From Cyathus striatus (lineage: Eukaryota; Basidiomycota; Agaricomycetes; Agaricales; Nidulariaceae): a stretch of 64,000 nt of DNA. The notes beneath the pieces are model-generated. The model was not told the origin of the DNA, made no database searches, and worked only from the letters and a program-made list of their open reading frames with translations. Each line of letters starts with the position of its first letter. The stretch's first letter is position 1. Shown here in pieces: positions 319 to 53,832 of the stretch. The translations under genes and the position numbers were made by a program. Location of the stretch: NCBI GenBank assembly GCA_025738555.1, contig JAOVFP010000001.1, positions 5,642,001 through 5,706,000 on the forward strand, read 5' to 3'.

Positions 319-415
319 TGTCGGTAGCTGGAATCGAACCAGCGGCTCCTCGGATTATCGCTGTCATCCAACATATAACCACAACGAGGTGATTTAACCC
401 CTAATCGATACCGAC
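319..415 (-). tRNA. tRNA-His (GTG) with a 25-nt intron
   Basis: Read on minus, the acceptor strands GTCGGTA and TACCGAC pair over 7 bp, followed by discriminator A (complement of T319). The D stem is GATT/AATC, the anticodon stem CCTCG/CGAGG, and the T arm GCTGG-TTCGATT-CCAGC. The anticodon loop becomes TTGTGGC, with anticodon GTG, once a 25-nt intron at 354-378 is removed directly after position 37, the canonical nuclear tRNA intron site. The G1:C72 pair with A73 and no encoded G-1 fits eukaryotic tRNA-His, where G-1 is added after transcription. It delivers histidine in cytosolic translation. The RNA polymerase III A and B boxes lie inside the D and T arms. Confidence 0.93.
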
Positions 416-14373: not shown

Positions 14374-14473
14374 GGCAACATGGCCGAGCGGTCTAAGGCG
14401 CCAGAATCAGGTTATACGACGAGGTTCCTCTATCTGGTCCTCCGGGGCGTGGGTTCGAATCCCACTGTTGTCA
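14374..14473 (+). tRNA. tRNA-Leu (CAG) with a 20-nt intron
   Basis: The acceptor GGCAACA pairs with TGTTGTC (one G-T pair), with A73 at 14473. The D arm is GGCCGAGCGGTCTAAGGC, usual for class II tRNAs. The anticodon stem is CCAGA/TCTGG. After removal of 14412-14431 the loop is ATCAGGA, giving anticodon CAG. The long variable arm (TCCTCCGGGGCG) confirms the leucine/serine class. The T arm is GTGGG-TTCGAAT-CCCAC. The intron lies directly after position 37. It decodes CUG codons in cytosolic translation. Confidence 0.92.
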
Positions 14474-17516: not shown

Positions 17517-18281
17517 TGTTATATCCGTGTCCGGATACATCGTGCCGACATTCCCACGTGACCTTCTAACATACCCGGTCTGTTCCCGGAACGTACCCGC
17601 TTCGGGTTTACACTTCCCAATGTTCCCGCCCAGGAACGTACCCGGAACCCGTCGGGTTTTCTATCGGATACTTCGGATACGTACTTTCTCTTATGACGGC
17701 CTCACCGCGTCATCATTCTATTACTCCTCTCTTCCATTCCTACTTATATGTTTCATTATGGCCTTTGTAGATTAGTTCCTTATTCTTCATTCTGAGTGCG
17801 TCATTTGCGCCCCTACTCCGCTTTGCCAAGACTTCATTCCTACTTACTCCTTTGACTTGTCCTTTGTATAATACTTCTACATTCGTATCTACAGGTTACT
17901 ACTTAGTATAAGTAGTCTTCCAGATGTAATAGGTAGTCTTCAGTATTCGTATCAACTCTGTACACTTTCTTCCTACACTAAGTTCTGAAACCCGCTCCAG
18001 GTTTTCCTTCAGGTTTCTCTCCCACTGCCTAGTGTAGTGGCGAAGCCCTCTCTTATACTCTGGAACGTTTCCTTACATTGGATATCGTCTGTTGTGAAAT
18101 ACGAACCATTCCCTGGGGATATCCAGGCGGCGCAGCACATACGCTGAAGCCACGGTTCACTTCTGCACTTCCGCTCTCGTTCCCATACCCATACTCACTT
18201 TGGGTTTCCATTATAGTTCTCCCATGCCCTCTGGGTGTCGTCGCATTCGTTTCCCAGTAGGAAGGGAATCGGTACATAACA
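17517..18281 (+). mobile_element. solo LTR of the Ty3/Gypsy family
   Basis: A 765-bp copy beginning TGTTATATCC and ending GGTACATAACA. It is nearly identical, in reverse orientation, to the two LTRs of the complete element at 24907-32989. It is flanked by perfect 5-bp repeats, CTTCT at 17512-17516 and 18282-18286, the hallmark of integrase-made insertion. No internal sequence remains, so the element was reduced by LTR-LTR recombination. The open frame inside it (from 17527) is only LTR sequence; the same frame recurs in the 3' LTR. The LTR is CpG-rich while its host sequence is not. Confidence 0.92.
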
Positions 18282-20299: not shown

Positions 20300-20853
20300 A
20301 TGAAACATGTGACTTGTGCTCAATTGGTTTGAGTGAGGTAGACTGATGAGGTGGTGGGTAGTAGATGGTGATATATATCAGTTAGTCAAGTGGAAATACA
20401 AGGCAGAATGCTGCATTTTATTGGGCACAAATGTAATTAATATAACTGAATCTGAGGAATATTATTTGTCAAATTTTTTATACCTGATTTCTTTATTCAG
20501 GTTCAAGTTGGTTTAAGTGAGGAGAGATTAGGTGGGATGGTAAGTGTAGATGGTGATATATATCAGGTAGTGGAATAGAATTACATGACAGACTGGCTTA
20601 GCTGTTAGATGTTGCAGTGCATTCAGATTCTATTAGGTGCAAGGTCAGTCTGATAGGGGCTACACAAAGACATCATTTGTCAAAGTTTTTATATCTAACT
20701 ATTTTTTTTAGGTTCAGGTCAGTGAGAGGCAAATATTAGATGGGATGGTATGCAGTAGATAATTATATATATTAGGTAGAGGAATAGAGATATAAGGAGC
20801 ACTGACTTAGCTGGTAGATGCTATGCTGCATTCTATTTGGTATAATGTCATGA
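20300..20853 (+). repeat. satellite array, block 1 (about three units of 170-210 bp)
   Basis: Three diverged direct units share, in order: TTTCTTTATTCAGGTTCAAG, TTAGGTGGGATGGTA, GATATATATCAGGTAGTG, ACTTAGCTGGTAGATG and a TGCTGCATTCTATTGGGTGC-type end. The same family forms block 2 at 33340-34095 in the same orientation. No open reading frame spans a unit. Confidence 0.7.
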
Positions 20854-24906: not shown

Positions 24907-25670
24907 TGTTACGTACCGATTCTCTTCCTGCTTAGAAGTGGTTGTGAAGACACCCGGGGGTGTGGGAGAACTATAACGGAAACCCGAAGTGAGTACGGGT
25001 GCGGAAACGTAGAGCGGGAGTGCGGAAAGAACCGTGGCTTCAGCTTGTGTGCTGCGCCGCCTGGATATCCCCAGGGAATGGTTCGTATTTCGAGGAAGAT
25101 GATATGTAACCAAGGAAGACGTTCCAGAGTATAAGAGAGGGCTTCGCCACTACACTAGGTAGTGGGAGAGAAACCCGAAGGAAAACCCGGAGCGGGTTTC
25201 GAAACTTAGAGTAGGAAGAAAGTGTACAGAGTTGATATGAATACTAAAGACTACCTATTACATCTGGAAGACTACTTATACTAAGTAGGAACCTGTAGAT
25301 ACGAATGTAGAAGTATTATACAAAGGACAAGTCAAAGGAGTAAGTAGGAAATGAAGTCTTGGCAAAGCGGAGTAGGGCGCAAATGACGCGCTCAGAATGA
25401 AGAATAAGGAACTAATCTACAAAGGCCATAATGAAACGTATAAGTAGGAATGGAAGAGAGGAGTAATAGAATGATGACGCGGTGAGGCCGTCATAAGAGA
25501 AAGTATGTATCCGGGATACCCGATAGAAAACCCGACGGGTTCCGGGTACGTTCCCGGGCGGGAACGTCGGGAAGTGTAAACCCGAAGCGGGTACGTTCCG
25601 GGAACGGACCAGGTATGTTAGAAGGTCACGTGGGAACGTCGGCACGATGTATCCGGACATGGATATAACA
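24907..25670 (-). repeat. 3' LTR
   Basis: 764 bp, nearly identical to the 5' LTR and to the solo LTR at 17517. It contains a 48-bp stretch, missing from the 5' LTR, within the GC-rich part around 25530-25595. Confidence 0.95.
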
Positions 25671-25689
25671 GTATCCCCCTTTTAGGGCC
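25671..25689 (-). other. polypurine tract
   Basis: On minus the sequence just inside the 3' LTR reads AAAAGGGGGATAC and then TGTTATATCC. An A/G run at this place is the usual primer for plus-strand DNA synthesis in LTR elements. Confidence 0.7.
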
Positions 25690-25812
25690 GAGCCCACGAG
25701 GTCATACTGTGTGCGAGAAAATATAACTAAAAATAATACGAGAAATCCTATTGGTCAGTAGATGTTCAAATAAGAGAACATATGTGCATCTGATTCCTTT
25801 CTAACCCCCATC

Positions 25813-26901
25813 ATGGATAAGAGTGTCAATCTAGCAAATATTTCTTCGGAAGATTATGCTGCTTTCCTAGCCTATCGTGCGGCCAACCAACAGTCAGAAA
25901 ATTCGACTCCAGCATCCCGGAGTAGTTCCGGAAAGCCGAGACCAAAGCCGAGGCCTATAAATCCGGCTCCAAGGCGGGAGAACGCCGCGTACGTAGCTGT
26001 TCCACCGGCAACGCTTCCCTCTGTTCATTCCGGGACGGCGGCAAACACGGTTACGCCGCGGGTCGTAAATCCGACGGAGACGAGTGTCGGGAGTGGGTCG
26101 GAAGCATCGGGAGACGTGACAGGTTCTGGATATGAGGCGGAAAGTGGTGGAAACATAGGAAATAGTAAGGGTAAGGGTACAGATGATTCTGGGGAGCCAA
26201 AGGAACTACGATACTATCATGATGTGCCTTGCATAAACTGTCAGGATCGGGGAACTGAGTGTTATCGCTTGAGGGAGTCAAACAGGTGAGTAAAACATGA
26301 TTATCGGTCTGTATAGTTTATAGGAACTCCCTGTAGTGCTTGCGTTGCTTGCAGGGTGCTTAAGGGAAAATGTTCCCTTAGCACTCGAGGCCGGAACAAA
26401 GCCGGAACAAGTCCCGTTCCATCCGGTCCTTCGGAACACTCGGATACTCACATGGGTCCCCCATCCGTTGCGCCATCTCGCCAGTCGTCTCGTCAAAGCA
26501 TGAAGCGGGCTCGGATCGACGACACGGATGATGAGTTTATCCGTCCTTCATCCGCAGTAGCGGGTCCATCGTTCCGATCCTCTAGTGCAAACGATTCTGC
26601 TAATCTGGTCTCCTTGTCCACTTCCATGAATGTCGCAACATCCATCCTAAGCGCGATGCAGCTGCAGAACGATACTATCATCTCTTTGCAAAGGGAGATG
26701 ATCACTCAACTCGGAAACCTCGCGGATACCAATCGCAAAGTGGTAGGCGAACTTGGTAAGTTGTCGCGAGTAGTTGCTGAAGTATCCGAGCACGTCGTCC
26801 ATGTTTCCAACATCGAAACCCTGCTCGCGGAACGCCTCCGGGATCCGGATGCGTACGAGGAAGTTGTTACGGGTTCGGGATTGCGTCGGAAGGTGAAGTA
26901 G
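25813..26901 (+). CDS. antisense accessory gene of the chromovirus: Zn(II)2Cys6-like coiled-coil protein
   Basis: Lies inside the LTR element but on the strand opposite gag-pol. Exon 1 is 25813-26285. A 51-nt intron, 26286-26336 (GTGAGT...CTGTAG), leads to exon 2, 26337-26901. The splice keeps frame over 345 codons. It joins CINCQDRGTEC to ACVACRVLKGKC and so creates C-x2-C-x6-C-x9-C-x2-C-x6-C, the spacing of fungal Zn(II)2Cys6 DNA-binding clusters. Residues 1-135 are rich in S, P, G and T and probably disordered. The C-terminal part (QLQNDTIISLQREMITQLGN onward, through VVGELGKLSRVVAEVSEHVV) has heptad leucines and valines, suggesting a coiled coil. An inverted CCAAT box (ATTGG) lies near 25750. 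Neither intact frame nor splice would be expected by chance. DNA or RNA binding in regulation of the element is inference. Confidence 0.75.
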
Positions 26902-27060
26902 GAGCTCGGGTCGAGTCGCAGACGCAGAGGGAGTGATGGAAATGGTCGTAACACATTACCAAAGAATTAATGTACTTGTATCTCGCTTTTTGGATGTTAT
27001 TCGTTGTTTTTGGTTTTTGTATAAGGTGAAACTGCAAGCGGATAATAAGTAACGTGAAAT

Positions 27061-30000
27061 TTAAGAAATAGGAGTAGGGCCGGGCTTATCCGGATAGCGG
27101 GAGTGGAACTCTTCAATGATATCCGTAGCGTGTTCCAGTTCCATGGCCGGAAGCCATGAAAACTCTTCATCTGTCCCTTCATACCCTAGCCAGCGTACGT
27201 AGTACCTCAGTTTGCAATGCAAACGACGATCCAGTTTAGAGTCCAAGATTTCCGAGACCTCATATTCAATATCACCATCAACCTGGACAGGTGGTGGTGG
27301 AGGAATAATGCGATCTGGGATAGTATTTTCAGTATTGGGTTCAAGCATGGATACATGGAATACTGGGTGGACTGCACGAAATTGTTCTGGAAGGCGCAAG
27401 GTACGCGAATGCGATCCGGCAAGTGCGATGACTTCAAAAGGTCCTAGGAACTTTTCTGCAAGTTTCCGGGATGGTCGGGTTGTCCGGAAGTACTCGGCTT
27501 TGACGTATACCTTTGTCCCGACGGGGAATGCGGGTGCGGGTTTGCGACGCGCATCGGCGGGTGCTTGGTAACGTTTCTGTGCACTGAGTATTTCGGTCCG
27601 AAGCATCTCGTGAAGTTCCTCGAGGTTTACTGTGAAGTGCCGGGCACGAGCGGAAGTGAGATCACGTTCCGGATGTATCGCAAGGTTCGGGTGATAACCC
27701 TTGTTTGCGTAGAACAGTGAAATTCCTGTGGTTGCGCTCGGTGCATTATTGTAAGCAAATTCAGCAAGAGGTAAGAGATCACACCAGTTATCCTGCTGGT
27801 AGTTGCAGTAGGCCCGAAGGTATTGTTCCAGAGTTTGGTTTGTGCATTCCGTTTGGCCGTCGCCTTCGGGGTGATAACCCGAGGTGAAATGTAAAGTGAT
27901 GTCGAGGGCTGTACCGAGGGAACGGAAGAAATGCGACACAAACTCGGAACCACGATCGGAAGTGATGTGTTCCGGGACTCCGTGCTTGGAAAAGACATGA
28001 AGTACAAATAGAAGCGCAAGGTCGGAAGAAGAGCAAGTGGTATGAGTGGGAATGAAGATAGACTGCTTGGAGAAACGATCCACGATAACGAGTATAGAAT
28101 CATACTTGGAAGCCGATGATTTTGGAAGTTGATCTATGAAATCCATAGATATCGAATGCCATGGGCGTCCGGGAACCGGAAGTTGTTTCAGGGTTCCGTA
28201 CGGGCAGTGGCGTTGTGGTTTAGAACGCATGCAAGTATTACAAGACTTACAATAGTCCTTTACAAACGTTCGTATAAGCGGCCAAGTATATTCGCGTCGA
28301 ATTAGCTCGAGGGTCTTGTTCTGTCCAAGGTGTCCTGAAAGCGGGTGGTCGTGTTTGTACTGTAAAACCCAAAGCCGAAGGGTTCCGGAGTCCGGAACAT
28401 AGATCCGGTTATCTAGACGGAGGAAACCGTCCGGGGTTACAGTCCAACGATTCTTGGGAGTCCGCATTCGGATAACTGCGACCGGGTCATTAGGGAGAGC
28501 TGATAATATGTCAGTATGTAACTGTTCAATGTCCATGATGATACTAGCGCGAAGAGCGGGTACAATAAGTGATGTTGCTCGGAGAGAAGTGATAAGCTGT
28601 TCCTGTGTGAACACTGGACGATAGTTATGCGGATTGACCTTAGCGTAGTCGCTATCCCCCTCTTTAGGGTAGACGTCCCATCGTCTAGTCAGAGTATCCG
28701 GCTTCGCCCCGAGTTTTCCAGGTCGAAAGCAGATAACTAGATTGAACTGGGAAAGATACTCGGACCATCGGGCTTGTCGTCGGGACAAGATCTTGGTTGT
28801 GGAAAAGTATTCCAAGTTCTTGTGGTCTGTGACGACGTCAATGGGTGAACCGGAACCTTCCAGGTAATGACGCCACGCCAGAACTTGGAATGCTTCGAAG
28901 ATAGCAAGCAATTCCTTGTCATGGGTGTCGTAGTTTAACTCGGGAGGTGTAAAGGTTCGTGAGTGGAAAGCGATAGGGTGAATCTCACCATCATCGGAAA
29001 CTATAGACAGGATAGCAGCCAACGCGTAATCCGAAGCGTCGGTTTCCACGATGAGCTGCTTGTCGGGAACCCAATGGGTAAGAATGGGTGCCGACGTGAA
29101 AGCGTCCTTAAGTTCAGTGAAAGCGGAACGGCATTTTTCCGAGAAGTTCCACGGATTACCCTTCCGGGTAAGGCGGGTGAGCGGAACAACTATGTCGGAA
29201 TAGTTGTATATAAAACGCCGATAGAAATTAGCGAACCCAAGGAAGGATTGAATGTCTTTTACTTTCCTTGGTTCCGGCCATTCTTGAATAGTCTTCACCT
29301 TTGTTGGAGACATGGTGAGACCGTTGGGCGATAGTATATATCCGAGATATTCCACGGATTCGAGTGGAACTCACACTTATCGCGCGCGTACAACCCGTGC
29401 TTCCGGAGTCGACGCAAAACTTCCCTGACATGTTGGCGATGTTGCGCAAGGTTATCAGAGTATATAAGGATGTCATCCAAATAAACTATGACGCACACAT
29501 CAAGAAGGTCTTTGAAAACATCGTTCATGAAGCGTTGGAAACCCGCGGGTGCATTGGAAAGTCCGAAGGGCATGACTAGCCATTCAAAGGATCCATAGCG
29601 AGTCCGGAAAGCGGTTTTCCATTCATCGTCCTCGGCAATGCGGACCAGGTGGTACGCATGACGCAGGTCGATCTTGGTGTAGATACGGGCACGACGGGGA
29701 CTGTCGAGCAAATCTGAAATGAGTGGCAATGGATAACGATCCTTTTTAGAAATAGCGTTCAACCCGCGGAAATCCACACAAAGCCGAAGCGATCCGTCCT
29801 TCTTGCGGACAAAAAGGACGGGAGCCCCATGCGGAGAGCGCGAAGGTTGAATGAATCCGATCCGGATATGTTCATCGATGAAATCCCGAAGAGCGGAAAG
29901 CTCGGATTGGGAAAGGGAATAGATCCGACCTACAGGAGGTGAAGCACCTTCCTCTAGGTTGATCTTTAAGTCGTAGGGACGGTGAGGGGCAAGTGTATCT

Positions 30001-30725
30001 GCCCGGGACTTGCTAAATACATCAGCAAACTCGTGATACTCAGACGGTATTGAAGAGAGATCCGGAGCTTCCTCTGGATTGAGGGCAGCGGCGGAAGCGA
30101 CAGAAACGGCATGCACGCGAGAAGGCGGCACCATTTATTAGCGAAATGCTAGGAGGAGGTGGCAGAGACTCATCAGAGGTGACCGGAGATGGATCCTCGG
30201 AAGCAGAACCTGGTTCCGAGATCCCGGATTTGAGTGGAAGTTGCTCGGAAGTGTCTGGAGTCCGGAATGTTAATGAGCCCGATACCCAGTCAATCAACGG
30301 ATTGAAGCGGGTGAGCCAATTGTATCCTAGGACTGCAGAACACACGGAATCAAGAGGTGTCACATAGAGTTCGACTGTAATACATTCACCGGTAGGGAAT
30401 AGTACAGGCAGTGTAACGAACTCGGTTATAACATGATTGGTGGTGCCATCGAAAAGTCTGAGAGCAATAGGTGGAGTAGGTGAGGTAGGAATAGCATGTG
30501 TCCGAACGAAAGATGAATCCATAAAACAATGGGTAGAACCCGAATCGACTAGAGCGCTATATGAAACTGTACAGGGTGTAGGGAGAGCATGGATGGTACT
30601 ACAAAGTGGAATATGAAGGGCATTGGGGTCGGAAAGAGCGGAAGCGTTGAGTCTTACCTGCATCGGCTGCGCACAAGGGGGAACAACGCGGTCCTCGGCT
30701 TGTGTGGTGTCCAGAGGACCGCTCC
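27061..30725 (-). pseudogene. pol: chromovirus pol (PR-RT-RNase H-IN-chromodomain) with two frameshifts
   Basis: Read in the -1 frame relative to gag. The aspartic protease has [17 protein letters not shown] near 30540. RT includes [40 protein letters not shown] and the catalytic YLDD in [14 protein letters not shown]. RNase H has VETDASDYALAAIL and VVTDHKNLEYF. Integrase has a zinc-binding HHCC region ending CKSCNTC and the DDE core (SMDFIDQLP; TSDRGSEF; HPEGDGQTECTNQTLEQYL). The C-terminus is a chromodomain (YEVSEILDSK...YYVRWLGYEGTDEEFSWLPA), about residues 700-755 of the last segment. The frame shifts by one base near 30110-30134 (apparent extra base) and back near 29345 (apparent missing base), so the RT half lies in another frame. 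This copy therefore looks defective, unless both are sequencing errors in short A or T runs. Confidence 0.93.
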
Positions 30726-32237
30726 CTATTTTTTCGAACCCGAAGCCGGGTTGGAAAGAGGCGTGGATCTGCGGGTCGAGGGACCCGCAGAAGCCGACGT
30801 AGGAGCCGAAGCGGATATTCCGGATGCCCGGGCTCTAGCCGCGGAAGAGGCAGAGCGGGGACATTCTTTGGCGCGATGCCCCGGATTACCACAGAACAAG
30901 CATAGATTGTTGTCCATGCGACACTGACGTTCTTGTGGCAAAAGTTTGCCATCTCGACCAACCTTGTCATTCAATTCCGGCCTCCGCTGTTGGGGAGGCT
31001 GCGAGGAACGAGGTGGGTGACTACCAGCACGGTGGGGATAGCTCGGACGGGGTGCATATTGGCCCGAAACGAGGCGGGAAGGCGCCGGGGTGACTGCGGG
31101 GTGGTTTGTAGTAGCTCTAACAGAGCTATCCGGAACCCGCGGACCCCGAGGCTGGTGGGATTCCCGCGTACGCTCGGACTGGCGTTCCCAGTACCGACTA
31201 TCGATCCCTTGAGCTAGCTTAATCATCCCGCGCTTTGTGGTAGGTTTCCCAACATGAGAGATCTCATCCTTAATGCGACCCGGAAACCCGGAATAGAGTC
31301 GGTGGCATAAGGATTTATCATCCCAGTCGGTGCGCTGTGCAAGCCTGTTGAACTGTACAAGATACTTGGACAGTTTCTGTGAATCCTTCATAACGAGGAC
31401 ATCCAGATCATTCTCGGCATCCCCTTCCGGGTTCACTAACCCGAAGTTATCCTCTAGCATGACGATGAAAACCTCCCAAGAGTGAAGGAACTCATCATCA
31501 GCGTAGGGATTGGAGAGGGTCGGCATAACGAGCTGAAGCGCGGTATCCCGAAGATATGCGAGAGCGAAGTTGACCTGGGAATGTCCATCCGAGTATTGGG
31601 AAGGATTATTCCGGAAGTAAATTTGGCATTGAGTAATGAACTGCTCCAACTTCTCAGCACTGGAACCGTCAAAAGTATCTGGCTTTTGAACGTTGCGTTC
31701 CCGACGTGTTCCCGATGTACCCTGGGCAGATTCCGCAACTCTCAAAAGAGCTTCGGCAAGCCGGTCTTCCCGGGAGTGGCGCGCAAGAGGTGTGCGCCTG
31801 GGATTGTCGACATCATCCTCATCACCATCATCCCCTGAGTCTGAGGATGGTGGAGACGGAGGATTGGGCTGAGAAGGAGGTGGAGGTGGCGGTCCAATGG
31901 TACCACCATCGGAGCCGTGACCCTCAGGAGTGTCCCGGTCTGCTGCGACTGTACCATATGGCGGTGGAGTGCCATCCGGAGGAGCCTGAGCGGATCCGAG
32001 GTTCCCGGCTGCAGGAACAGAAAGTAGCTGAGCGGAAGTCGAGGGTGGACCCAGGAAAGTAGCACTAGGAGGTGGTGCTGGGCTGGGTGTAACCCGAGAC
32101 GGTGTAGAAGGTAGAGAACCTGAAGTACTCCTTGGAGGCTGTTGCCTCGTAGCTGCACGGGTGGCACGAGCACCCACAGCATTGGTATGACTAGTGGTAT
32201 GCGCTGTGCGAGTAACCGAAGTCCCAGTTGGAGCCAT
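30726..32237 (-). CDS. gag: chromovirus gag (capsid and CCHC nucleocapsid)
   Basis: 503 residues. The N-terminal third is rich in P, S, T and G. The capsid-like core includes [54 protein letters not shown] and [20 protein letters not shown]. One zinc knuckle, [14 protein letters not shown] (CCHC), lies near residue 450, followed by a basic, S/A-rich tail. It packages element RNA into cytoplasmic particles. The last codons are TCG AAA AAA TAG; slipping back one base on the six A residues enters the pol frame directly. The frame is intact. Confidence 0.94.
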
Positions 32238-32273
32238 GATAAAGAGATATCCAAGGTATCAGTATTCGTATAC

Positions 32274-32989
32274 TGTTACGTACCGATTCTCTTCCTGCTT
32301 AGAAGTGGTTGCGAAGACACCCGGAGGGTGTGGGAGAACTATAATGGAAACCCGAAGTGAGTACGGGTGCGGAAACGTAGAGCGGGAGTGCGGAAAGAAC
32401 CGTGGCTTCAGCTTGTGTGCTGCGCCGCCTGGATATCCCCAGGGAATGGTTCGTATTTCGAGGAAGATGATATGTAACCAAGGAAGACGTTCCAGAGTAT
32501 AAGAGAGGGCTTCGCCACTACACTAGGTAGCGGGAGAGAAACCCGAAGGAAAACCCGGAGCGGGTTTCGAAACTTAGAGTAGGAAGAAAGTGTACAGAGT
32601 TGATACGAATACTAAAGACTACCTATTACATCTGGAAGACTACTTATACTAAGTAGTAACCTGTAGATACGAATGTAGAAGTATTATACAAAGGACAAGT
32701 CAAAGGAGTAAGTAGGAAATGAAGTCTTGGCAAAGCGGAGTAGGGGCGCAAATGACGTGCTCAGAATGAAGAATAAGGAACTAATCTACAAAGGCCATAA
32801 TGAAACGTATAAGTAGGAATGGAAGAGAGGAGTAATAGAATGATGACGCGGTGAGGCCGTCATAAGAGAAAGTACGTATCCGGGATACCCGATAGAAAAC
32901 CCGAAGCGGGTACATTCCGGGAACGGACCGGGTATGTTAGAAGGTCACGTGGGAACGTCGGCACGATGTATCCGGACATGGATATAACA
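32274..32989 (-). repeat. 5' LTR
   Basis: 716 bp, nearly identical to the 3' LTR apart from point changes and one 48-bp deletion whose ends share an AAACCCGA-type direct repeat. Just inside, on minus, follows GTATACGAATACTGATACC. I do not recognise a match to the 3' end of a tRNA, so the priming site is unclear. Confidence 0.95.
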
Positions 32990-33339: not shown

Positions 33340-34095
33340 TTTTTTATGTCTGGTTTCTTTGTTCAGATTTTTATTGGTGAAAGTAGTAGGAAATTAGGTG
33401 AGATGGTAAGTGTGGAGAGTGATATATATTAGGTAGTGGGATAGAATTACATGACAGACTGACTTAGCTGTTAGATCCTGTAGTGCATTCTATTGGGTGC
33501 AAGGTTGGTCTGATAGTCCATTTGAGAGTAACAAATAAATTTTTCATACATGGTCTTTTTGTTCAAGTTCAAGTTGGTAATAGTCCAGAGTGGAATATTA
33601 GCTAGGATGGTATGAGTGGTAGATGGTGATATATATCAGTTAGTTGAGTGGAAATACAAGAAGCACTAACTTAGTTGGTAGATGCCATGCTGCATTCTCT
33701 TGGGTGCAAAGTTAGTTTCATTCTGACATCTTCTAGAATTTTTATATATCTGGTTTCTTTATTCAGGTTCAAGTTGGTAATCAGAGGACTCATGAAATTA
33801 GGTGGGATGGTAGATAATTATATATATTAGGTAGTGAAGTAGAAATACAAGGAGCACTGGCTTAGCTGGTTGATGTTATGCTGTATCCTAGGGACATGTA
33901 TGAATCACATTTTTTATATCTGGTTTCTTCATTCAGGTTCAAATTGGTAGATGGATGGTAGATGGTTATATATATTAGGTAGTGAAGTAGAAGTACAAGG
34001 AGCACTAACATAGCTGATAGATGTTATGTTGTATTCTGTTAGGTGCAACGTCAGTCTTAATGATGACTCTATGAGACTGAATATTTTTTTCTGGT
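33340..34095 (+). repeat. satellite array, block 2 (four units of 160-210 bp)
   Basis: Units start near 33342, 33551, 33749 and 33919. Each has TCTGGTTTCTTTATTCAGG, GTTCAAGTTGGTA, a GGGATGGTAGATGGT-type word, TATATATTAGGTAGTGAAGT, ACAAGGAGCACTGACTTAGC and TGGTAGATGTTATGCTG-type blocks. It is the same family as 20300-20853. The array ends sharply near 34095, where CpG returns. Confidence 0.75.
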
Positions 34096-47902: not shown

Positions 47903-49843
47903 ATGTCGAGGCTTCCACCCCGGAAAGATCCGGAGATCACAATGCCTCGCTCAACATCTCTGTCCACCCCACCTTCAAACGGAACGGCTCCCACTCGACC
48001 ATCTCCTACATTGTCGACGACAACAAGATCGAAGACGACTGACGATGGGACAGGGGGTTCAAAAACCCGATCCAAGACAGCACCGACACGTGTCAACAGC
48101 GCTCCCCCCCTTATGAACACATCGGAGGCGCGCGACATCTTGGACCAGGAAGGATATGTGCCAGCCACATGCGCATTTGAGGCTTCCACCGCCTGTATCA
48201 TCCTGAACCAGGTTGCGGGCTTGCTACCAGCTGCTTATCAAAGTAAGTGTGGATCTATTCTTCGCGCAGTGGCCGTTTTGCTCGATGACAAGGCGATCAA
48301 TGCGATCGCTACACGAACACAGGCGTTAGTGGAACACCAGTTGGAACGCTTCGAAACTGCTACGTTAAGACTCGAGTCAACCCACACTCAAGCCTCCGCA
48401 ATCTTACACCATCTCAAGGAGGGTGTTGCGGAGGAATCGAATCATCGGCATGACGTCCCTGGTGTAGGGGAACCCCAGTTCATGGGTCGTCCGTTGTACG
48501 CTGCTGCCCTAGCTTCAGCTGCCGCCCCCCATTCTAGTGCCATCAGAGCAGCTACCCTTCGAGACCGCCAGGTGCCAATCAAATTGGCGGATCCTGGCAG
48601 CTCTGAGCCCAACAGTGTGGGTAATTTATCCCCCCGTGAGCTTGTTGCGAAAGCAAATCTTGCATTGGATGGCTTGGTAGATGCCACCTATAGTCGCCCT
48701 GAAGGGGCAATGATTATGGCGGCACACCGGACTGGTGGCATGGTCATTTTGGAAGCCAACTCAGCCTATGCAGCTGGATGGCTACGGGGCAAGGACATTA
48801 TGCCCTCGTTCATTTCTCATTTTGATGGTTCCTCCACTGCGAATCTTTCCCTCTTTTCTGTTGTTGCCGAATTTGTACCCACTTCGTTTCACCCCTCACC
48901 CTCTTATAATTTTGGGGACTTGGAGACCAACAATGGTCTCCGGTCAGGCTCCGTTGCAGAGGCAAAGCCTCTCAAGGATCCTGGATACTGGAAGGAGGGC
49001 CAGCGTTTTGCCCACTTCCTGTTGGCATTCTCTGACCAACAGAGCGCCAACAAAGCCATCTTCAATGGCCTTGTCATTGAGGGGGCACGCATCCAAGTAC
49101 GCAAATTTATCCCAGAACCCACCCGATGCCTACGCTGTCAACGTTTTGGCCATTTTGCACGTGAATGCAAAGCCACAGCTCCTACATGTGCTCGCTGTGC
49201 AAAACCACATACTACTGTCAGTTGCACAGCAGCGAAGGGTATCTTTTCTGGCCACCGCTGTGCCAACTGTGGCCTGACGGGCCATGGAGCGGCGGCACGT
49301 GCATGCTCCATTTTTGCCCGACGACTTTGGGTTTACTATAACCACTCCGATTCCACGAAATACATAGGCTTCCCTTCCGATGATCCTGCAACATGGAAGT
49401 TGGCAGCTATTAAAGCGCCATGGGGTATCTCTGCCTCATCATGGGCAGCAGCAGCTCACCCATCTCGCTCTTCCCGTGTTACACCCCCTCCCATGCCACC
49501 CCAGGAGGTGGAGACGGAGATTAGACAGCTTCCCATGGGCCCCCCACCTGTTACTCTTGGGGGTGGCCCTGTTACTACTTCCCAACCTTTGATGGCCAAG
49601 CGCCCCAGTACTAAGGGGCCAGGCAAAAAGCTCCCTGGTGCCCCCGCGGATTCTTTTGGGGGACGGACTGCAGGTCCTCCCTCCCAAGATCCTCTTATCG
49701 CAGGGCGTCAAGGACCACTGGATACCTACATCTCCAGGTCTCGTCCAAGCTCGCGGGCTAGTGCTGCTCCCACTTCCAGTGAGTGGGCTAATGATGTAGA
49801 GGAGGGAGAATTACCGCAGCCTAACACCTCATTGCCTACATGA
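47903..49843 (+). CDS. LINE ORF1 (gag-like, CCHC zinc knuckles)
   Basis: 646 residues. The N-terminus is rich in P, S and T. A middle region holds a possible coiled coil (VLLDDKAINAIATRTQALVE). Three cysteine motifs lie at about residues 412-470: CLRCQRFGHFAREC, CARCAKPHTTVSC and CANCGLTGHGAAARAC. Such proteins bind the element RNA and act as chaperones during target-primed reverse transcription. I prefer the ATG at 47903; an out-of-frame ORF from the broken host gene runs across this leader. The stop overlaps the ORF2 start as ATGA. Confidence 0.88.
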   Translation: MSRLPPRKDPEITMPRSTSLSTPPSNGTAPTRPSPTLSTTTRSKTTDDGTGGSKTRSKTAPTRVNSAPPLMNTSEARDILDQEGYVPATCAFEASTACIILNQVAGLLPAAYQSKCGSILRAVAVLLDDKAINAIATRTQALVEHQLERFETATLRLESTHTQASAILHHLKEGVAEESNHRHDVPGVGEPQFMGRPLYAAALASAAAPHSSAIRAATLRDRQVPIKLADPGSSEPNSVGNLSPRELVAKANLALDGLVDATYSRPEGAMIMAAHRTGGMVILEANSAYAAGWLRGKDIMPSFISHFDGSSTANLSLFSVVAEFVPTSFHPSPSYNFGDLETNNGLRSGSVAEAKPLKDPGYWKEGQRFAHFLLAFSDQQSANKAIFNGLVIEGARIQVRKFIPEPTRCLRCQRFGHFARECKATAPTCARCAKPHTTVSCTAAKGIFSGHRCANCGLTGHGAAARACSIFARRLWVYYNHSDSTKYIGFPSDDPATWKLAAIKAPWGISASSWAAAAHPSRSSRVTPPPMPPQEVETEIRQLPMGPPPVTLGGGPVTTSQPLMAKRPSTKGPGKKLPGAPADSFGGRTAGPPSQDPLIAGRQGPLDTYISRSRPSSRASAAPTSSEWANDVEEGELPQPNTSLPT

Positions 49844-52800
49844 GTGACACCGTCACTCCAGATGCGCAGAAGGAGCTTCGGTTCTGGCAACAGAACGTGA
49901 ATGGCTCCTTATTGGGACATCAGGACTTACTGGTGTCCCTTGGGCAGTTCGATTATGACATTTGTGCCATCCAAGAACCCTACATCGGGTTTAATGGAAA
50001 ATCACGCGCCAACTGTTTCTGGCGACCGGTTTACCCCTCTACCAAGGCACCGGAGGGGCGGGTTCCCCGTTCACTTCTTCTTATTAATACTGCTATTTCT
50101 TCCAATGCTTGGGCTGAAGTGCCGATTAAATCCTCTGATATTACAGCTGTGCGCCTCCACTTGGATGGGGGACGTACCCTCTTCATTTTTAACATTTATT
50201 TGGCTTGCACCCACAATGACGCATTGCGCCCATTGGTATCTGCTATGCGAGAGATCCACTCTCAGCCGCTTGGCCTGGGAGAATCTCGACATTTCATTTG
50301 GATGGGAGATTTTAATCGCCATCATCCCCTTTGGGATGAGGAGCGTAATCATCATCTCTTCACTAACCAAGCTCTCATACTCACACAGCCTCTCCTCCAC
50401 CTCCTGGCAAGATACCATCTACAGATGGCTTTACCTAAGGATATCCCCACCTTGGAGGCCTTCAACACCAAAAACCTTACACGCGTGGATCAAGTCTTTC
50501 TGAGTGAGGAGCTGATGGATCAGGTTGTCCTTTGCATGACAGTCCCAGAGTTCCGCCCACCAAGAGTAGATCACTTCCCCATCATCACCAGACTCCTCGC
50601 TACCACTCAGACCTCTGTTCCCCGACCACGCCGCAACTTCAAACAGATCGACTGGGCCACATTTCGAACACATCTGCGCACACAGCTGGATCACCTCCCG
50701 CATCCTGATGAGTTCACCTCTATTGAACAATTCACCACATCCTTAAACATGTTCACTGACATCATCACACAGGCAATTGTGGACAATGTTCCACTGGTTC
50801 GGCTTTCCCCCCACACTAAACGATGGTGGAGTCCTGAGCTCGCTGCTCTTAAAAAGGTGAAAGTTCGGCTGGAACGCAAAGCACATCGTATGCGCCGACA
50901 GCCTAACCACCCATGTCATGAGGAGGCTCGATTGGCCACTCGGCTATATGCCAGCAGCATGGATGATGCGAAGGATAAAACTTGGCTAACATATTTGGAG
51001 AGTCTGACGGATTCCACGATATGGGATGCTGGACGCATGGTGATGGCGCCTGGCACAGATAGTGGACGAGCTCGTATACCTAACCTGGTACAACGAGATC
51101 CTATTACCAAGCGGGTTAGTGCCACAGCGTGCACTAATGAGGAGAAGAGCGAAATGTTTTACAAGACGTTTTTCCCTCCTGACTCTGCAGCGGCAGCTCC
51201 TCCTCCGCACGCTGATTACCCAGAGGCTGCATGGCAGTTTGACAACTTTTCTAATGAGCAGATTGATCGTGCTATTGACCGCATCAATCCTGCCAAAGCC
51301 ACTCGCCCTGACTCTATCCCCAATGTGGTGATTAAGGAGTGCAGGTCCCTCCTTCTCCCCTTCCTCGGGCCATTTTTCCGTGCTACTGTTACACTTCGAT
51401 ATTACCCTGCAGAATGGGCACGCACAGAAACCCTTATTCTTAGGAAACCGGGAAAAACAGACTACTCGTCTCCCTCTTCCTGGCGCCCTATAGTCCTCTC
51501 TGATGGACTTGCGCGCTTGTTGAACAGTTGCATGGCTGAGGAACTCACCACAATGTGTGAACAGCATAAACTCCTCCCCTCACATCATTTCGGTGGACGT
51601 CCAGGACGCGCCACCACTGATTCCTTACAGCTTTTGACTTACTCAGTAAAGGCTGCCTGGCGACGAGGAGAAGTAGCTTCACTCCTCAGCCTTGACGTTA
51701 AAGGAGCGTTCCCAAGTGTTTCACTTGACCGCTTGTATCATGAACTGCGCTTACACGGGATCCCTCCTACATTGATAGAGTGGCTCTTTCGGGCTCATCA
51801 GCAGCGTAGTACAACTTTGGCTTATGATGATTATCTATCTGCGATTCTCCAGCTCCTATCTGGGCTGGACCAGGGCAATCCTGCCTCTTCTATTCTTTAC
51901 CTCCTGTACAATGCTGGTCTAATAACCGCAACACAGGGGGCTCACCTTTCTTTGCTTTTTGTTGATGACTCTGCCATGTTACTCACAGGACGCACACTAC
52001 ATGATACGCATTCAGCTATCCGTGGGATTATGTCGCGTCCAGGAGGAGTATTGGACTGGGCTACGACTCACAATTGTGAGTTTGGAATTGAAAAATTCCA
52101 GTTATGCGACTTTACCCGACGACGTATCCGCGATACATCTATCCTACAATATTTTGGCCGCACGCAGCGACAACGTACACGCACTATACCTATTCCCCGT
52201 CCCTCATTGGAGATCGAGGGACGTATTATACCCTCCTCTCCTACTCTTCGATTCCTTGGTATATTATTCGACAATGAACTACGATGGGGGCCACAGCGGG
52301 CGGCAGTACTAACCAAGGGACAGCAGTGGATCCAACAGGTTTCACGATTGGCCCGCCCCTCAAAGGGGGCCTCGGGCACCTGCCTACGACGTTTATATAT
52401 TGCCCAAGCTGTCCCTCGTATTTTGTATGCTGCTGACCTATTCCTAACCCCCCCAGACCTACACCAGCGCTCACCACCCTCTAGCCTGGTAAAGTTGACG
52501 TCTTTGCAACGGCAAGCGACACTGCTCATCACTGGTGGATTGCGGTCTACACCGACGGATGCCCTCGATGTCCTAGCCGGTTTACTACCGTTTCATATCC
52601 TACTGGCCAAACACCAACACAGAGCCCTCCTTCGATACTGCACCCTTCCGCCTACTAACCCCATCCACAAGATTGTCTCCCATGCTCGCAACCGCCGCAA
52701 ACTGCGCTCTCACAATTCCCCCCTCCACCTCCTCTTTCATGCTTACCCACTCAATCCTCGGATAATCGAGACAGTGCTGCCCATACGACACCCTACTTCA

Positions 52801-53832
52801 TGGACCCCCCCATTTTCTACGCTGGTCGCACCTAGCAAAGAGGCAGCCATCGCCATGGACACGGTGGACAATGCTGACATTATAATTTATACAGATGGAT
52901 CTGGGTTCAAAGGACTTATCGGCTCGTCGGCGGTAATGTATCGTGGAGCGCGTGAAGTGGCACGCATTCGCTACCTCCTCGGACCTGACTCTTGTTATGT
53001 AGTATACGGTGCAGAGTGTGTAGGCCTCCTCCTTGGCGCCCATCTCCTACGAAAGGAACGGGGATTCAATTCTGTGACCTTCGCGATTGATAATCAAGCA
53101 GCCATATCAGCCTCAGAGAGCCACTACTCTCGTCCTGGACATTATATTGTGGACACCTTCCTTGAGACCCTCGCGAATGTTGTCGACGATGACATCGAGA
53201 TTACTATTCGATGGGTCCCGGGGCATTGTGACGTGCCTGGCAATGAGGCCGCCGACAGTGAAGCGAAGCGTGCCATCACACAGGGCTCAAGCCCTCACCT
53301 TGACCTTCCTCGACCACTCCGCCACATACTCCCTCTCTCCAAAGCCGCTATACGAGCAGAGTTCCAGAAATGCCTCAAAGCAGCTGCCACTACCCACTGG
53401 AAACAGTCGCCCTCCCACGCAAGGATCAGCCGCAATATCCCAGCTAAGCCGTCCCCCTTTACCTCTGCATTGCTCCTACAATTACCTCGCAAACTCACTA
53501 GCTTGATTACACAGATGATCACGGGGCACATCGCCCTCAACATGTACCTCCACCGCATCGGCAAGGCTGCATCCCCAAACTGCGGGAAATGCTCCCGAAA
53601 CTCCCCGGAGTCCGTCGAGCACTTCCTGCTACGATGCCCGGCCTATGCTGACCGGCGTGGACCACTACTTGCACAATGTGCTCAGCGCGGACACCGGATT
53701 TCCCTGCGCAAGATTCTTTCTGCTCCAAAGAACCTATCAGCACTAGCTGTCTTCGTCAATGCCACAGGCCGACTACGGCAGACACTAGGAATCATACCAC
53801 GATGGACCCCCCACAGGAGGATAATTAGTTGA
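49840..53832 (+). CDS. LINE ORF2 (endonuclease, reverse transcriptase, RNase H)
   Basis: 1330 residues. The apurinic-type endonuclease domain is N-terminal (LRFWQQNVNGS; DICAIQEPYIGF; MGDFNRHHPLWDEE near residue 154; RVDQVFLS; DHFPIITRL). The RT domain spans about 440-750 (SSWRPIVLSDGLARLLN; HHFGGRPGRATTDSLQLL; LSLDVKGAFPSVSLDRLY; GLDQGNPASSILYLLYNAG), with catalytic FVDD near residue 705. RNase H lies at about 1013-1140 (IIYTDGSGFKG; YGAECVGLLLG; FAIDNQAAISAS; WVPGHCDVPGNEAAD). A zinc-binding C-terminus, CGKCSRN...HFLLRC, starts near residue 1247. The protein nicks DNA and copies element RNA at the nick. ORF1 stop and ORF2 start share ATGA, so translation probably restarts there. No damage is seen. 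Confidence 0.95.
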   Translation: MSDTVTPDAQKELRFWQQNVNGSLLGHQDLLVSLGQFDYDICAIQEPYIGFNGKSRANCFWRPVYPSTKAPEGRVPRSLLLINTAISSNAWAEVPIKSSDITAVRLHLDGGRTLFIFNIYLACTHNDALRPLVSAMREIHSQPLGLGESRHFIWMGDFNRHHPLWDEERNHHLFTNQALILTQPLLHLLARYHLQMALPKDIPTLEAFNTKNLTRVDQVFLSEELMDQVVLCMTVPEFRPPRVDHFPIITRLLATTQTSVPRPRRNFKQIDWATFRTHLRTQLDHLPHPDEFTSIEQFTTSLNMFTDIITQAIVDNVPLVRLSPHTKRWWSPELAALKKVKVRLERKAHRMRRQPNHPCHEEARLATRLYASSMDDAKDKTWLTYLESLTDSTIWDAGRMVMAPGTDSGRARIPNLVQRDPITKRVSATACTNEEKSEMFYKTFFPPDSAAAAPPPHADYPEAAWQFDNFSNEQIDRAIDRINPAKATRPDSIPNVVIKECRSLLLPFLGPFFRATVTLRYYPAEWARTETLILRKPGKTDYSSPSSWRPIVLSDGLARLLNSCMAEELTTMCEQHKLLPSHHFGGRPGRATTDSLQLLTYSVKAAWRRGEVASLLSLDVKGAFPSVSLDRLYHELRLHGIPPTLIEWLFRAHQQRSTTLAYDDYLSAILQLLSGLDQGNPASSILYLLYNAGLITATQGAHLSLLFVDDSAMLLTGRTLHDTHSAIRGIMSRPGGVLDWATTHNCEFGIEKFQLCDFTRRRIRDTSILQYFGRTQRQRTRTIPIPRPSLEIEGRIIPSSPTLRFLGILFDNELRWGPQRAAVLTKGQQWIQQVSRLARPSKGASGTCLRRLYIAQAVPRILYAADLFLTPPDLHQRSPPSSLVKLTSLQRQATLLITGGLRSTPTDALDVLAGLLPFHILLAKHQHRALLRYCTLPPTNPIHKIVSHARNRRKLRSHNSPLHLLFHAYPLNPRIIETVLPIRHPTSWTPPFSTLVAPSKEAAIAMDTVDNADIIIYTDGSGFKGLIGSSAVMYRGAREVARIRYLLGPDSCYVVYGAECVGLLLGAHLLRKERGFNSVTFAIDNQAAISASESHYSRPGHYIVDTFLETLANVVDDDIEITIRWVPGHCDVPGNEAADSEAKRAITQGSSPHLDLPRPLRHILPLSKAAIRAEFQKCLKAAATTHWKQSPSHARISRNIPAKPSPFTSALLLQLPRKLTSLITQMITGHIALNMYLHRIGKAASPNCGKCSRNSPESVEHFLLRCPAYADRRGPLLAQCAQRGHRISLRKILSAPKNLSALAVFVNATGRLRQTLGIIPRWTPHRRIIS

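What the first reader, a model, noticed from the sequence alone, without database searches (positions are those of the whole stretch)
25813..26901. Antisense, intron-bearing gene with a Zn(II)2Cys6-like motif inside a chromovirus
Opposite gag-pol, between integrase and the 3' LTR, a two-exon gene is conserved enough to keep 345 codons and a 51-nt intron in frame. Splicing unites two half-motifs into C-x2-C-x6-C-x9-C-x2-C-x6-C, followed by a likely coiled coil. An intron in antisense survives retrotransposition because the genomic RNA carries its complement and cannot splice it. A transposon-borne, host-style transcription-factor motif could regulate the element (for example silencing the LTR or competing antisense), or be a captured host gene. 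I know of antisense ORFs in some plant LTR elements; this arrangement in fungi is, to me, not described.
Basis: partly seen in the sequence, partly recalled or inferred. Interest (0 to 1): 0.88.

Follow-up and report, generated by a model that had tools for sequence, protein, structure and literature searches.

The report
Antisense zinc-motif gene inside retrotransposons
A mobile genetic element, probably in a fungus, carries a small split gene on its opposite strand that has kept a zinc-binding-like motif over many rounds of copying, and a second, related group of elements in the same genome carries a gene of the same design, so these elements seem to encode their own accessory, perhaps regulatory, protein.

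Summary
A Ty3/gypsy chromovirus (24907-32989, minus strand) carries a two-exon plus-strand gene between pol and its 3' LTR; a 51-nt intron separates two half-motifs with six cysteines in all. It looks like a selected gene: 48 of 51 aligned sequences cover the intron and all 48 keep GT(G/A)AGT...TAG; 45 of these keep all six cysteines; median dN/dS is 0.34, against 0.80-0.88 in four control frames and 0.44 in a fifth. The window copy is frameshifted near its end; the family protein is 357 aa, not 345.

New here: (1) a second chromovirus family in this genome carries an antisense 499-aa gene with the same double motif, a phase-2 intron between the same cysteines and heptad repeats (profile match over the motif only: 86%, E 5e-6); (2) the half-motifs match the Zn(II)2Cys6 profile weakly, in swapped order; (3) a gene-less sibling has at least 40 near-identical copies, and one close relative shows no such gene, so it is dispensable in cis.

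Likely a trans-acting DNA-binding accessory protein; function untested.

The parts
24907..25670 (-). 3' LTR of the chromovirus
   Evidence: direct repeat with 32274-32989; starts TGTTA, ends TAACA; preceded by CAATG
32274..32989 (-). 5' LTR, followed by CAATG
30726..32237 (-). gag ORF, 503 aa
   Evidence: Retrotrans_gag 26.7 bits and zf-CCHC 21 bits, both just above cut-off
27061..30663 (-). pol, in three overlapping ORFs in this copy (27061-29355, 29295-30134, 30040-30663); the 764-aa piece has RNase H, integrase, SH3_Tf2-1 and chromodomain
   Evidence: the two upstream ORFs were not scanned
25671..25812 (+). interval with the polypurine tract (sense) and the presumed promoter of the antisense gene
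   Evidence: 92-94% identical in three older copies whose LTR is 85-86%; promoter activity inferred
25813..26285 (+). antisense gene, exon 1 (ATG 25813)
26286..26336 (+). intron, 51 nt, phase 2
   Evidence: donor and acceptor kept in 48 of 48 rows that cover it; splicing not shown
26337..26901 (+). antisense gene, exon 2 as read in this copy; family frame would end at 26936
26230..26262 (+). first half-motif C-x2-C-x6-C (residues 140-150)
   Evidence: matches Zn_clus positions 17-34
26341..26373 (+). second half-motif C-x2-C-x6-C (residues 160-170)
   Evidence: window form matches Zn_clus positions 2-14, the commoner Gly form does not match
26671..26796 (+). heptad-repeat stretch (residues 270-311), likely coiled coil
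   Evidence: 0 of 500 shuffles as good; no structure prediction could be run

Best explanation
The feature is an accessory gene of a chromovirus lineage, carried antisense between pol and the 3' LTR. It is read from its own promoter in the conserved interval beside the 3' LTR, spliced once, and translated into a 357-aa protein with a six-cysteine, zinc-cluster-like motif followed by a coiled coil. I think it works in trans in the nucleus as a dimeric DNA-binding protein that acts on the element itself (LTR transcription or the integration step). Because it acts in trans, gene-less derivatives can spread beside gene-bearing ones. Shown: gene structure, conservation of frame, splice sites and cysteines, the second family, the gene-less sibling. 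Inferred: transcription, splicing, zinc binding, dimerisation, nuclear action on the element.
For: 74 places with the gene by my merging of the match lists (some are fragments of one split copy, and the lists are capped). 30 of 33 copies held with long flanks show LTR - gene - antisense pol in the same order; in L038 and L046 no LTR was found, in L047 it lies 484 nt off. Selection; cysteine and heptad regions have the lowest ratio (0.24 each). Copies at 76-88% identity mostly keep frame by 3n indels. A second family (L077; 75 places by my merging of 99 matches) has a 499-aa antisense gene with the same cysteine pattern, phase-2 intron between Cys3 and Cys4 and heptad repeats; hhalign 86.3%, E 4.8e-6 over the motif (no shuffled control). 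Of 150 pol SH3 hits scored (656 candidates), 27 have the window-type gene, 15 the L077-type and 27 the gene-less segment directly downstream on the opposite strand (one hit is in both the first and third count); 1 has an L077-type gene upstream, 81 none. Gene-less siblings.
Against: No expression, splicing or binding data. I see no canonical branch point in the window intron (L077's has GCTAAT). Zn_clus is below cut-off for both families and absent for L002. LTR CGG pairs are not specific. McDonald-Kreitman-type counts are significant in 2 of 5 comparisons (p 0.015 and 0.03, the same two groups) and not in 3. One reverse frame has dN/dS 0.44. 44 of 50 other copies are not fully open. Spread without the gene also fits a dispensable passenger.
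Confidence: 0.5

Rival explanations
1. Self-limiting repressor: the protein damps its own element (copy-number control), so that loss of the gene is favoured in derivatives.
For: A gene-less sibling with at least 40 copies at 97-100% identity (40 of 70 candidates scored) and a gene-less close relative, L076.
Against: Selection on the frame over subfamilies needs a lasting benefit of keeping it; a trans-acting repressor would also act on the sibling. Not tested.
Confidence: 0.17
2. Protein used in the particle or at integration: a zinc-binding, coiled-coil nucleic-acid protein (chaperone or chromatin tether), not a transcription regulator.
For: Cysteine motif and heptad stretch fit a nucleic-acid-binding oligomer as well as a regulator; supply in trans would let the gene-less sibling spread.
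Against: Gag already has a zinc knuckle and pol a chromodomain; the weak profile match is to a DNA-binding cluster.
Confidence: 0.13
3. Captured host gene carried as a passenger, with selection that reflects its host ancestry or occasional host benefit.
For: It has an intron and a host-style motif; the gene can be lost without stopping spread.
Against: No copy outside the family was recognised in the genome (capped, limited sensitivity); two element families share the design, and 30 of 33 copies sit in the same place in the element.
Confidence: 0.12
4. The antisense RNA, not the protein, is what matters (interference or double-stranded RNA with the genomic RNA).
For: Convergent arrangement over the pol-LTR interval; intron and upstream interval are conserved more than synonymous sites or the LTR; reviews discuss this role for plant elements (passages).
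Against: In-frame constraint, cysteines and mostly 3n indels in older copies point to protein.
Confidence: 0.08

Closest known systems
brtn, the antisense gene of Boty-like elements of Botrytis cinerea (Zhao et al. 2011; paper not held; seen as citation and in passages of other papers)
   Same: Fungal LTR element with a chromodomain in gag-pol (passage) and an extra antisense gene between pol and 3' LTR (passage).
   Different: Homology, intron and cysteine motif of brtn could not be compared: neither its sequence nor the paper is held.
Plant aORF-3R genes: Grande gene23, RIRE2, Retand TRP28, PvRetro13 (PMC7264820 and PMC11963269, passages read)
   Same: Same position and orientation; DNA binding suspected; for Grande gene23 an own promoter and a nuclear product are reported.
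   Different: Plant elements with other domains (TRP28, SMC); 'intron' and 'zinc' occur 0 times in both texts.
Fungal Zn(II)2Cys6 (Gal4-type) binuclear cluster, Pfam PF00172
   Same: Six cysteines as two C-x2-C-x6-C halves, with a heptad-repeat stretch further on.
   Different: Below Pfam's cut-off; half-motifs match in swapped order; element-borne and antisense; linker of 13 in the second family.
HTLV-1 HBZ (recalled; antisense HTLV genes are mentioned in passages)
   Same: Antisense, spliced, nuclear regulator encoded by an LTR element (recalled).
   Different: No sequence relation tested; HBZ is a leucine-zipper protein of a retrovirus (recalled).

Membership tests
Chromovirus (Ty3/gypsy with chromodomain) | RNase H, integrase and a C-terminal chromodomain in pol | tested here: met
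   PF17917, PF17921, PF00665, PF00385 above cut-off
Chromovirus (Ty3/gypsy with chromodomain) | Paired LTRs and target-site duplication | tested here: met
   LTRs 24907-25670 and 32274-32989, CAATG on both sides
aORF-3R (antisense additional ORF between pol and 3' LTR) | Position and orientation, in many copies of the family | tested here: met
   30 of 33 copies with flanks; a gene-less sibling subfamily also exists
aORF-3R (antisense additional ORF between pol and 3' LTR) | Antisense transcription from an own promoter | not testable with these tools
   No expression data; only conservation of 25671-25812
Zn(II)2Cys6 / PF00172 | Score at or above Pfam's gathering cut-off (21 bits) | tested here: not met
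   13.8 bits window protein; not listed for L002, 12.4 for L077; 20.9 for the window's 53-aa motif piece
Zn(II)2Cys6 / PF00172 | Spacing C-x2-C-x6-C-x(5-12)-C-x2-C-x(6-8)-C (recalled) | tested here: inconclusive
   Window linker 9, within; L077 linker 13, outside
Zn(II)2Cys6 / PF00172 | Canonical order of the two half-motifs | tested here: not met
   7 natural half-peptides scanned, E 0.0066-0.019 at best: 4 matched, all in swapped order (first half to profile 17-34 and 16-34; second half to 2-14 and 1-15), 3 gave no match; both yeast GAL4 control halves matched in canonical order
Zn(II)2Cys6 / PF00172 | Binds two zinc ions and CGG-type DNA sites (recalled) | not testable with these tools
   LTR CGG-pair enrichment not specific
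brtn family (Boty) | Sequence homology to brtn | not testable with these tools
   No brtn sequence at hand; paper not held

The most novel reading that the evidence does not exclude
A clade of chromoviruses encodes, antisense and split by an intron, a half-swapped (circularly permuted) Zn(II)2Cys6-type DNA-binding protein with a coiled coil: a transposon-borne transcription-factor family older than the split of two element families, lost more than once while the elements live on, and able to act in trans for gene-less parasites.
Probability: 0.25. Interest if true: 0.8.

Novelty: new variant of a known kind. Interest (0 to 1): 0.62.

Why it matters
Antisense accessory genes of LTR elements are known, mainly in plants, with no settled function. 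Here one genome holds two families with what looks like a homologous gene, and a natural gene-less sibling of the same element, each in tens of copies: a ready comparison for what such a gene does for its element. If the protein binds DNA through a swapped zinc cluster, it would also show that the Gal4-type cluster tolerates reordering of its halves.

Tried and rejected
Protein database: three searches (window protein, alignment A1, L077 protein; limits E 1, 10, 1) gave nothing; the collection may hold few fungal proteins, so this says little about rarity. PDB sequences: window motif nothing at E 10; L077 motif only LAC9 (E 0.83) and LEU3 (E 8.8). CGG repeats in the LTR as binding sites: set aside, since gag, pol and the gene are enriched too and L077's LTR is not. 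Ten other chromovirus loci were fetched beside pol SH3 hits (L073-L077, L079-L083, several of one family): 1 of 10 (L077) has the antisense double motif. The organism was not identified; that it is a fungus is inferred. Paper searches; 'circularly permuted' occurs 0 times in the 15 papers listed of 302. Structure prediction never ran.

Full report
What is in the window. The element is a Ty3/gypsy chromovirus on the minus strand, 24907-32989, with LTRs 24907-25670 and 32274-32989 that differ at 9 of 714 aligned columns (8 transitions) plus about 48 nt of length, and the target duplication CAATG. Gag is open (503 aa); pol is broken into three overlapping ORFs in this copy, and the 764-aa piece carries RNase H, integrase, a Tf2-1-like SH3 and a chromodomain. 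The genome held as G000 has 107 Mb in 24 contigs and no name. That it is a fungus is inference from the element type, the short introns and the motif.

The antisense gene. Exon 1 25813-26285, a 51-nt intron, and exon 2 from 26337 give 345 aa with C-x2-C-x6-C-x9-C-x2-C-x6-C. I aligned 50 other copies from G000 with the window gene (51 rows); L053, L055 and L065 are deleted over the intron. In the 48 rows that cover it the donor is GTGAGT (46) or GTAAGT (2) and the acceptor TAG; none lost the intron cleanly. 45 of these 48 keep six cysteines (exceptions L017, L024, L038). 46 of the 50 other copies have an extra base near 26875, so the window copy's C-terminus is frameshifted. The family protein is 357 aa and fully open in 6 of 50 copies. 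Stops in older copies recur at arginine positions 133, 175 and 302, which are CGA in the window, as CGA-to-TGA decay would give. Many of the youngest copies carry single-base indels; whether these are real or assembly errors was not settled.

Selection. On 17 copies chosen from the 51 rows, stop codons skipped, median dN/dS was 0.34 (133 of 136 pairs), against 0.85 and 0.80 in the other forward frames and 0.81, 0.44 and 0.88 in the reverse frames; the 0.44 frame is the one control that comes near. By region the ratio was 0.63 (residues 1-60), 0.40, 0.24 (cysteines), 0.37 and 0.24 (heptad region). McDonald-Kreitman-type counts: 17 N / 26 S fixed against 95 / 60 polymorphic between the group at 95% or more and the 87% group (p 0.015), p 0.03 with the polymorphism of the other group, and not significant in three other comparisons (0.44, 0.24, 0.79). 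In three older copies with full flanks (L024, L026, L035) the 142 bp before the ATG are 92-94% identical to the window, the LTR 85-86% and exon 1 79-84%. The intron differs less than synonymous sites do, which I cannot explain.

A second family. Of ten further chromovirus loci fetched beside pol SH3 hits (several belong to one family), one, L077, has an antisense gene of the same design: 499 aa, a 48-nt intron GTAAGA...GCTAAT...CAG in phase 2 between Cys3 and Cys4, C-x2-C-x6-C-x13-C-x2-C-x6-C, heptad repeats. The intron splits the 8th residue after Cys3 in the window and the 5th in L077. Profile comparison with the window family gives 86.3%, E 4.8e-6, over the motif only, with no shuffled control. 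L077's chromodomain is 72% identical to the window's; of the eight fetched loci of other clades, three were compared and are 25-31% identical (L073, L079, L082). The L077-type gene has 99 matches, merged by me into 75 places; the window type 74 places, some of them fragments of one split copy; both lists are capped. Of 150 pol SH3 hits scored (656 candidates), 27 have the window-type gene, 15 the L077-type and 27 the gene-less segment directly downstream, in each case on the opposite strand (one hit is counted twice); one has an L077-type gene upstream; 81 have none of the three.

Natural losses. Six loci (L067-L072) belong to a sibling whose LTR and following interval are 96-97% identical to the window's and whose pol end is 98-99% identical over 373-412 nt in the three loci measured, but with about 370 bp of non-coding remnant in place of most of the gene. 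The remnant is 64-73% identical to gene copies in the 40 rows listed, far less than its flanks, which suggests recombination with an older broken gene. At least 40 copies exist, at 97-100% identity to the query (40 of 70 candidates scored), and one on C11 sits beside a 1268-aa open pol frame. L076, with a chromodomain 85% identical to the window's, has LTR-like matches ending about 100 nt from pol and no antisense ORF of 80 aa or more. So the gene is not needed in cis; it may serve in trans.

The motif. Pfam Zn_clus scores 13.8 bits for the window protein and 12.4 for L077 (cut-off 21), and is not listed at E up to 1 for L002, the commoner form. The window's 53-aa motif piece scores 20.9. Of seven natural half-peptides four matched (E 0.0066-0.019): first halves to profile positions 17-34 and 16-34, second halves to 2-14 and 1-15, the reverse of the canonical order; three did not match; both GAL4 control halves matched in canonical order. 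Two of the four are versions of one peptide, and one is the window's Arg-164 form, a minority state (8 of 51 rows AGR; the common Gly form did not match). The L077 second half resembles the first half of LAC9, at E 0.83. So I do not file it as a Zn(II)2Cys6 protein, but it may work like one.

Literature. [quoted passage not shown] PMC11963269, passages), and brtn in Boty of Botrytis cinerea is a fungal case (Zhao et al. 2011; citation and passages in other papers). 'LTR Retrotransposons in Fungi' (PMC3248453) has 0 occurrences of 'antisense' in its main text. Among the titles and abstract starts listed I saw no paper on an intron-bearing, cysteine-motif antisense gene; subscription journals are mostly not held, so this is weak evidence of absence.

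Noticed in passing
L067-L072; G000 places: Gene-less sibling of the same chromovirus, at least 40 copies, with a non-coding remnant of the antisense gene between nearly identical LTR and pol: probably a recombinant.
   Followed up: partly
window 26286-26336 and copies: The 51-nt intron differs less between copies (4-18% from the window for older copies) than synonymous sites (dS about 0.3-0.6); unexplained.
   Followed up: no
G000 places: Many young copies, gene-bearing and gene-less alike, share an open pol frame of 345 aa at the SH3 hit, as if one pol break spread with the family or a frameshift is used.
   Followed up: no
L073-L075: Another chromovirus clade has a long ORF (427-429 aa) in the sense direction after the chromodomain.
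   Followed up: no
window 47903-53832: Non-LTR (LINE-like) element: an ORF without Pfam hit, then a 1330-aa ORF with endonuclease and reverse transcriptase and a below-cut-off RNase H match.
   Followed up: no
window 17517-18234: Inverted LTR-like copy (82-95% over pieces) of the chromovirus's LTR, about 7 kb from the element.
   Followed up: no
window 319-415 (-) and 14374-14473 (+): Two tRNA genes by Rfam.
   Followed up: no
window 33340-34037 and 20361-20804: Degenerate spaced direct repeats on both sides of the element that look alike by eye.
   Followed up: no
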